From an uncultured Clostridia bacterium (lineage in GTDB: Bacteria > Bacillota > Clostridia > RUG12999), in the NCBI GenBank assembly GCA_946555455.1, contig CAMNSU010000011.1, positions 1-48,435 of the forward strand: a DNA stretch of 48,435 nucleotides. The letters run 5' to 3'. The notes beneath the pieces were generated by a model. The model searched no databases. It was not told where the DNA came from and worked only from the letters and a program-made list of their open reading frames with translations. Position numbers and translations under genes: made by a program. This document shows positions 1 through 10,140 of the stretch, one piece after another (positions within the stretch are counted from its first letter, which is position 1; each line of letters opens with the position of its first letter).

Positions 1-105
1 GTCCTCCGGATTTGGGCTATGCCCAAATCCTCCCCCTCTTACTTTTTCTGAGGGACGCGTGCCCCAGAGGGTAAATACCCTCCGCTTTTTGCCCCCCCGT
101 TCTCC
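1..105. repeat. Interspersed hairpin repeat, copy 1
   Basis: A non-coding stretch opens with GTCCTCC. A perfect hairpin follows (arms 8-17 and 21-30, loop TAT), then TCCCCCTCTTACTTTT. The same order, with the same spacing but a different stem sequence, is found at 8645-8690. Similarity continues loosely through GTAAATA and CCTCCGCT to a C-rich run near 105. The window edge may truncate it on the left. I see no gene in 1-179. Confidence 0.7.
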
Positions 106-179
106 CTTGATTTTTTCTCCGGTAATGAGTTGCGCAAATAGAGCGGGCATAAGACATTGTATATATGTTCCCTTTATTT

Positions 180-1437: not shown

Positions 1438-1597
1438 ATTCAAATTGCGGACATGTGCCGCGATTTGAATACCTTGCAGCGTCCAGAGTGCCGAGGAACG
1501 AGGCGCGACACGCGAGTGTAGGACGCTGATAGGGGGATTCCAACAAGGGGGATAGTATGACAGCGAGTGAAACGAGCTGGAATAAGTCCCCTTTTTG
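1438..1597 (+). repeat. Three-hairpin structured repeat, copy A
   Basis: A 160-nt non-coding unit has three hairpins. P1 (1438-1470) has a 7-nt loop ACATGTG. P2 runs from GCGTCC at 1479 to GGACGC at 1527, with an inner GTGCC/GGCGC helix. P3 (about 1545-1594) is closed by AAGGGGGA/TCCCCTT and has an inner CAGC-GA...GA-GCTG helix. Copy B at 9684-9844 keeps loops, joints and length, but its stem bases differ in a compensatory way. It ends a few bases before the addB ribosome site. I do not recognise it as a named RNA family. Confidence 0.75.
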
Positions 1598-1618
1598 AAA
1601 AAGAGGGAGGTGAGCATC

Positions 1619-9683: not shown

Positions 9684-9844
9684 TGGAATGTCCGGACACG
9701 CGCCGGACATTCCATACCTCTCGCTGTTCGGAGTGCCGCGCCTAAGCGGCGCGACGCGCGAGCGCAGAACGGCGGTAGGGGGTGTTCACGAGGGGGATAG
9801 TATGACAGCGACCAAAGGGAGCTGGAAAAAATCCCCCTCGTGAA
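9684..9844 (+). repeat. Three-hairpin structured repeat, copy B
   Basis: This is a 161-nt unit with the same architecture as 1438-1597. P1 (9684-9714) has a 12-bp perfect stem and a 7-nt loop ACACGCG. P2 has outer pairs CTGTTC/GAACGG and inner GTGCCGC/GCGGCGC. P3 is closed by a 14-bp perfect stem (9785-9798 with 9831-9844) and has an inner CAGC-GA-CC-AAA-GG-GA-GCTG helix. It ends 9 bp before the -35 box of the thrS promoter, so it is not part of the thrS leader. The region 9595-9683 before it holds nothing I can identify. Confidence 0.75.
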
Positions 9845-9882: not shown

Positions 9883-9888
9883 TAGAAG

Positions 9889-10140
9889 AAAGGCATTGAC
9901 GGAACGAGTAGCCGGAGAAGAAGCAGACAGAGAGAGTGGGGAATAGGCTGGAACCCCAGTCCTGCGGATTTCGGTGAAAACCACTCCCGAGCCGCGTGTG
10001 ATGAGCACTGCCGCCCTCCGGCGTTACAGGAATAGGGTTCTTCAGAAAACCCGAAAGTGAAAAATCAAGGTGGAACCGTGCAAAAAAGAATTGTTTGCAC
10101 CCTTGAACAGGCGAAGCTTCGCTTGTTTAGGGGTGTTTTT
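9889..10140 (+). promoter_or_regulatory. T-box leader, threonine-specific
   Basis: The conserved T-box sequence AAGGTGGAACCGTG lies at 10067-10080. It is followed by an intrinsic terminator (10098-10140) built on GCGAAGCTTCGC with outer CACCC/GGGGTG pairing and a T-run. Stem I begins near 9890. A likely specifier loop, GTGAAAACCACTCCC (from about 9973), contains the threonine codon ACC. Uncharged tRNA-Thr should stabilise the antiterminator and allow thrS transcription. The specifier assignment rests on the downstream gene and on this one triplet. Confidence 0.9.

What the first reader, a model, noticed from the sequence alone, without database searches (positions are those of the whole stretch)
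1438..1597. Three-hairpin structured repeat with compensatory changes (copies at 1438-1597 and 9684-9844)
The two copies are 160 and 161 nt long and keep the same joints and loops (ACAYGYG loop in P1; GA/GA inner pairs and CAGC/GCTG in P3). Most helices change both partners: P1 stems share almost no bases; P2 outer GCGTCC/GGACGC becomes CTGTTC/GAACGG; the P3 inner pairs GT/AC become CC/GG; the P3 closing stem also changes. This pattern supports selection on structure. I do not recognise a named RNA. Copy B lies before the thrS promoter and copy A just before the addB ribosome site, so a shared cis-regulatory role is unlikely. A mobile palindromic element or a stand-alone RNA fits better.
Basis: seen in the sequence. 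Interest (0 to 1): 0.72.

Follow-up and report, generated by a model that had tools for sequence, protein, structure and literature searches.

The report
Terminator-invading structured mobile repeat family
The two hairpin clusters are copies of a roughly 160-letter mobile element, present about 50 times per genome and sparsely across other Clostridia, that keeps an elaborate RNA-like fold and inserts beside genes, often into transcription-stop hairpins that it duplicates, by machinery not yet identified.

Summary
Window 1439-1598 and 9684-9843 are two of 48 matches (full and partial) in the same genome, 53 and 23 in the two sister species. They share one fold: P1, then a three-way-junction P2 with a GNRA hairpin, then P3 with tandem G-A pairs. 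Covariation is overwhelming and Rfam has no match. A covariance model finds the same fold in other families of the class: 12 of 391 genomes sampled, up to 57 copies in one genome. The element is mobile. Three filled/empty site pairs show insertion, with target duplications of 18, about 44 and about 6 bp. In distant families 26 of 84 copies are flanked by direct repeats (about 0.1 expected by chance); 18 of those are hairpins, many with the A- or T-tracts of intrinsic terminators. In the home genus copies sit beside extended -10-like ATTATACCA. Y1 transposase, reverse transcriptase, TnpB and IS110 are each missing from several carriers. Best reading: a non-autonomous, BOX-like mobile repeat acting as a structured RNA or single strand, driven by an unidentified enzyme.

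The parts
1439..1598 (+). copy A of the element, upstream of addB (start codon about 1619)
   Evidence: nhmmer and covariance-model hit, 161 bits; fold z -7.1
1439..1469 (+). copy A, helix P1 (12 bp, loop ACATGTG)
   Evidence: covariation; helix 1 98% paired
1471..1536 (+). copy A, P2 three-way junction: closing ACCTT/AGGGGG, CAGCGTCC/GGACGCTG, P2a GTGCC/GGCGC
1508..1519 (+). copy A, P2b hairpin ACAC-GCGA-GTGT with GNRA tetraloop
1541..1597 (+). copy A, P3 hairpin with UGA/GGA inner loop and tandem G-A pairs
9684..9843 (+). copy B of the element, before the promoter and T-box leader of thrS; same site occupied in both sister species
   Evidence: covariance-model hit, 163 bits; fold z -8.2; L044 and L050 flanks
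9684..9714 (+). copy B, helix P1 (loop ACACGCG)
9716..9782 (+). copy B, P2 three-way junction with closing ACCTCT/AGGGGG
9754..9765 (+). copy B, P2b hairpin ACGC-GCGA-GCGC
9786..9843 (+). copy B, P3 hairpin

Best explanation
This is a family of non-autonomous mobile elements. The core (P1, P2 three-way junction, P3) folds on one strand, with extra hairpins on the left and often on the right. SHOWN: it is dispersed, structure-conserving and inserted; insertion duplicates a target segment of variable length; in distant families many of the duplicated segments are terminator-like hairpins, and in the home genus the right flank is often an extended -10-like ATTATACCA. INFERRED: an enzyme acting in trans recognises the folded element, as RNA or single-stranded DNA. 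It opens targets that readily become single-stranded or extruded, such as palindromic terminators and perhaps melted promoters. It cuts the two strands at opposite edges of that segment, so repair leaves one copy on each side. Duplicating the whole terminator hairpin leaves a hairpin next to the T-tract, which would keep termination working and let the insertion be tolerated. Compensatory pairs persist because copies descend from, and are converted by, copies that still fold.
For: 48/53/23 matches in three sister genomes. Covariation. Relatives with the same fold in other families. Filled/empty pair at G002_C94 against G000_C2 with an exact 18-bp duplication. Filled/empty pair at purN, L139 against L248, with a ~44-bp duplication, and L299 against L150 with about 6 bp. 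Flanking repeats in 25 of 73 copies against 0.1 expected, and 26 of 84 in the wider set, 18 of them hairpins. Unit ends recur at about 67 nt before P1 and 21-29 nt after P3. ATTATACCA exact in 18 of 69 right flanks against 0.4% of AT-rich 60-mers. Four of 14 shared sites carry clearly different versions of the element.
Against: No mobilising gene was identified and no autonomous copy was found. Only three empty sites were seen, one of them with a very short duplication, and two other apparent empty sites proved ambiguous or partial deletions. In the home genus only two copies keep clear long duplications (18 and 26 bp), so the hairpin-target rule rests on the distant families. Eight of the 26 duplications are not hairpins. 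The folded molecule (RNA or DNA) is not proven.
Confidence: 0.74

Rival explanations
1. A retroelement-like repeat: the folded RNA is reverse-transcribed into DNA at nicked hairpins by a reverse transcriptase supplied in trans, which would naturally give duplications of variable length.
For: Variable duplication length, 13 to 67 bp, unlike the fixed length of most transposases. RNA-type motifs: G-U pairs outnumber A-C 126 to 35, and P2b loops GCGA/GAAA/GUAA/GAGA/GUGA/GCAA. Terminator hairpins are the known target of group IIC introns (PMC7161350).
Against: No RVT_1 reverse transcriptase was found in G041, G081, G215 or G376, although G215 and G376 carry 57 and 39 matches. The two in the own genome look phage- or defence-type and have no element nearby. 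Truncated copies seen in L333 lack the 3' part, not the 5' part.
Confidence: 0.13
2. A conventional DNA miniature element (MITE) moved by a resident transposase through terminal repeats; the fold is incidental.
For: Dispersed, intergenic, with flanking repeats. In one family the ends read CAGA...TCTG by eye.
Against: Target duplications are not of fixed length. Long terminal inverted repeats are absent and ends differ between families. The internal domains covary strongly, which terminal recognition alone does not explain.
Confidence: 0.12
3. A multi-copy trans-acting small RNA gene family.
For: Deep structural conservation across families and RNA-like motifs.
Against: About 50 copies per genome in unrelated contexts, insertion polymorphism, different versions at the same site in sister species, and no built-in promoter seen.
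Confidence: 0.06
4. A cis-regulatory leader or 3' UTR element; copy A would control addB.
For: Copy A ends about 20 nt before the addB start codon, beside its ribosome site.
Against: Gene neighbours are unrelated, and orientation is about half sense and half antisense. Copy B lies before the thrS promoter, whose T-box leader already provides control.
Confidence: 0.05

Closest known systems
BOX / RUP / SPRITE repeats of Streptococcus pneumoniae (PMC3049150)
   Same: Small interspersed intergenic repeats, modular, strongly folded when transcribed, and often inserted into one another. BOX, RUP and SPRITE are enriched between convergent genes there, as the distant-family copies appear to be here (19 convergent against 6 divergent).
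   Different: BOX models were not compared directly. This family spans several families of Clostridia, has a three-way junction with GNRA loop, and duplicates terminator-like hairpins of variable length on insertion.
MITEs in general, including ERIC and Rickettsia palindromic elements (PMC10969869)
   Same: Non-autonomous, 100-250 bp, palindromic, dispersed, with target duplications.
   Different: No terminal inverted repeats of note, no fixed duplication length, no identified parent insertion sequence; internal helices conserved by compensation.
Group IIC introns (PMC7161350)
   Same: Structured RNA mobile elements that use intrinsic-terminator stem-loops as targets.
   Different: No intron domains (Rfam negative), no reverse transcriptase in several carriers, and the target hairpin is duplicated, which reverse splicing would not do (own knowledge).
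REP / REPIN elements with RAYT (Y1) transposases (PMC3116915)
   Same: Extragenic hairpin repeats recognised as single strands.
   Different: No Y1 transposase in the own genome, both sister species, G153 or G376, although these carry 8 to 53 matches.
IS200/IS605 and IscB omega-RNA (HEARO) and IS110 bridge RNA (PMC11208160)
   Same: Mobile elements with a structured non-coding RNA part.
   Different: TnpB and IS110 proteins are absent from most carriers; no HEARO match in Rfam; target duplications are long and variable.

Membership tests
MITE-like interspersed repeat (broad class) | Many dispersed copies without a coding region | tested here: met
   48/53/23 matches of about 160 nt; no ORF specific to the element noted
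MITE-like interspersed repeat (broad class) | Target-site duplication and empty sites | tested here: met
MITE-like interspersed repeat (broad class) | Terminal inverted repeats matching a resident insertion sequence | tested here: inconclusive
   Only CAGA...TCTG at the ends in one family, read by eye; no parent element looked for genome-wide
REP/RAYT | Y1 (RAYT) transposase in the genome | tested here: not met
   PF01797 absent from G000, G001, G002, G153, G376 while control genomes ring
Group II intron | Intron ribozyme domains and a reverse transcriptase | tested here: not met
   No Rfam hit; RVT_1 absent from four carriers
IS605/IscB omega-RNA | TnpB present, or Rfam HEARO match | tested here: not met
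   PF07282 above cut-off in 1 of 14 carriers; no Rfam match
IS110 bridge RNA | IS110 recombinase | tested here: not met
   PF01548 in 3 of 14 carriers and not in the own genus
BOX element | boxA-boxB-boxC sequence modules | not tested
   BOX models are not held; recalled sequences were not compared
Any Rfam family | Score above gathering threshold | tested here: not met
   E up to 5, no match; no match at the elements

The most novel reading that the evidence does not exclude
A new class of mobile element: a structured RNA (or single strand) is inserted into DNA hairpins and melted promoters by an unknown enzyme that cuts at both edges of the opened segment, so that the target duplication equals the hairpin itself and the host terminator is preserved.
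Probability: 0.25. Interest if true: 0.88.

Novelty: new variant of a known kind. Interest (0 to 1): 0.7.

Why it matters
Small interspersed repeats are common, but how most of them move is an open question. This family offers a deeply conserved fold, recognisable targets and empty sites in uncultured Clostridia, which makes the question testable. If the hairpin-duplication rule holds, it points to an insertion chemistry that I did not find described for bacteria and explains how repeats can invade terminators harmlessly. It would also add an unlisted structured family to Rfam.

Tried and rejected
Known RNA family: rejected, no Rfam match. Phage or plasmid origin: no match in 50,697 phages or 72,556 plasmids. 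A 21-base pattern scan of 84,980 genomes gave real matches only in the sister genome JAAWTG; the scattered others, and six viral contigs, do not match the model. Y1 transposase, reverse transcriptase, TnpB and IS110 as common driver: rejected by absence in several carriers. Autonomous copy: flanks of the few-copy genomes G042 and G017 show no shared ORF. Two apparent empty sites at G002_C55:3274 and 5373 were set aside as unclear or partial deletion. A uniform direct-repeat test in the home genus was mostly negative. Literature searches found no description of this element.

Full report
WHAT IS THERE. Searching the own genome with copy A gives 24 places by sequence alone. A covariance model built from 35 copies gives 48 matches, full and partial, in the own genome, 53 in one sister species and 23 in the other. 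The 53-copy sister appears in public records as JAAWTG, 'Clostridia bacterium isolate ABMPRH_312_1' (contig lengths agree). Copy A folds 7.1 and copy B 8.2 standard deviations better than shuffles.

THE FOLD. On the + strand there are three domains. P1 is a 12-bp hairpin whose stem sequence is almost free; its loop is conserved as ACNYGYG or, with first and last letters exchanged together, GCRUGYA. In 84 sequences I saw no mixed form. P2 is a three-way junction: an outer stem closed by ACCYT/AGGGG, a variable hairpin P2a, and a small hairpin P2b capped by a GNRA loop (GCGA, GAGA, GUGA, GAAA, GUAA, GCAA and others; two thirds of rows in an alignment that misplaces some). P3 is a long hairpin with a UGA/GGA inner loop and, in the longer forms, tandem G-A pairs. 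In 35 home-genus copies 92.5% of pair cells are standard, with 241 double changes against 73 in shuffles. In 84 copies from several families it is 94%, with 1023 against 304. G-U pairs outnumber A-C mismatches 126 to 35, so the + strand is the folded one.

DISTRIBUTION. In a class-wide sample 12 of 391 genomes match, in four families. In one order 18 of 28 genomes match, with up to 57 copies. In a phylum-wide sample only 2 of 398 match, the own genome and one more of the same class. There is no match to phages or plasmids. The pattern is patchy: many copies in some genera, none in near relatives. G003 to G008, the rest of the own family sampled, have none.

MOBILITY. (1) At G002_C94 an element with an 85-nt left module lies between two exact copies of CTGTATTTATTGTATCAT; the same site in the own genome has one copy of that sequence and no element. 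(2) In G215 an element sits in the start of purN between two 44-bp copies; G195 has one copy and no element (the gene name is read from the sequence by eye). (3) L299 against L150 is a third filled/empty pair, with about 6 bp duplicated. (4) At four of 14 sites shared by the sister species the element differs strongly (73-79% identity) between flanks that are mostly over 90% identical. So copies are also replaced or converted, in one case only P2 and P3 while P1 stays identical. Part of the compensatory change between copies may therefore come from swapping whole hairpins rather than point by point.

TARGETS. In the distant families 25 of 73 copies have flanking direct repeats (score 13 or more) against 0.1 expected from mismatched flanks. 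In the enlarged set it is 26 of 84, and 18 of these repeats are hairpins by a comparison with random segments. Many have an A-tract kept on the left and a T-tract on the right, as in L266, L142, L149, L274, L284 and L295. I read them as intrinsic terminators whose hairpin was duplicated. The unit ends recur at 66-70 nt before P1 and mostly 21-29 nt after P3. By eye, in at least four cases (L149, L279, L295, L311) the left hairpin has lost a pair while the right one is perfect, consistent with the right one being the working terminator; I did not test this formally. In the home genus the picture differs. Copies avoid convergent gene pairs (1 of 45; background 38 of 227). In 18 of 69 right flanks ATTATACCA, the complement of an extended -10 box, appears, with sites at +4 to +17 when one mismatch is allowed, against 0.4% of AT-rich 60-mers. 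Terminator hairpins and promoter melting regions can both become unpaired. That is my proposed common feature, and it is inference.

MACHINERY. No single known hairpin- or RNA-linked enzyme is shared by the carriers. Y1 transposase is absent from G000, G001, G002, G153 and G376. Reverse transcriptase is absent from G041, G081, G215 and G376. TnpB is above cut-off only in G195, and IS110 is present only in G041, G340 and G042. Draft genomes can miss genes, but the same absence across several genomes over 90% complete is unlikely to be chance. No autonomous copy was found in the loci read.

COMPARISON. It works most like the pneumococcal BOX repeats (PMC3049150) and other MITE-like repeats (PMC10969869). 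Its use of terminator hairpins recalls group IIC introns (PMC7161350). It is not a member of the intron, REP/RAYT, omega-RNA or bridge-RNA families by the features tested. I file it as a new variant of the small mobile repeat kind.

LIMITS. Gene calls in the context analysis are crude longest-ORF calls. Model E-values are rough by the tool's own statement. The three sister genomes and most others are draft metagenome assemblies, in which repeats often break contigs, so copy numbers are lower bounds. No expression data were available.

Noticed in passing
window 56-73 (minus strand); also L015, L019, L026, L031, L035, L043, L050, L057, L058: An 18-19 bp micro-element, TACCCTCTGGGGCACGCG or TACCACTCCGTGGCACACG, is inserted in either orientation with no visible duplication inside the P1 loop, in P3 and elsewhere; 19 plus 4 copies in 0.78 Mb of the own genome. 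It resembles the very small mobile repeats described in cyanobacteria (own knowledge).
   Followed up: partly
window 1-110; also inside copies at L029, L054, L059, L061: A different repeat of about 110 bp (GGACATTTTC...CTTACTTTTTCTGAG...GGAGGGTATTTAC type), itself palindromic, sits in intergenic regions and inside some elements at the P2/P3 joint.
   Followed up: no
window 9887-10107: A T-box leader before thrS scores 71.8 bits, below Rfam's gathering score of 93, but E is 7e-16; the routine scan misses it.
   Followed up: yes
home-genus copies, left flank of P1 (e.g. L014, L038, L019, L021): The left neighbour of P1 is one of several interchangeable palindromic modules of about 58-97 nt, each ending in ACTTTTCATTCA-like sequence; intergenic regions of this genus are mosaics of such modules.
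   Followed up: partly
L035 2032-2228 against window 1439-1598: In the sister species the addB-side copy has a hybrid P1 (left arm of one type, right arm like the neighbouring copy at L035 1442-1600) and two micro-inserts, suggesting conversion between neighbours.
   Followed up: partly
L254 1243-2382 and L260 (G000, G002): An uncharacterised reverse transcriptase of about 380 aa next to a ThiF-like protein is shared by the own genome and a sister species; no element copy lies near it.
   Followed up: no
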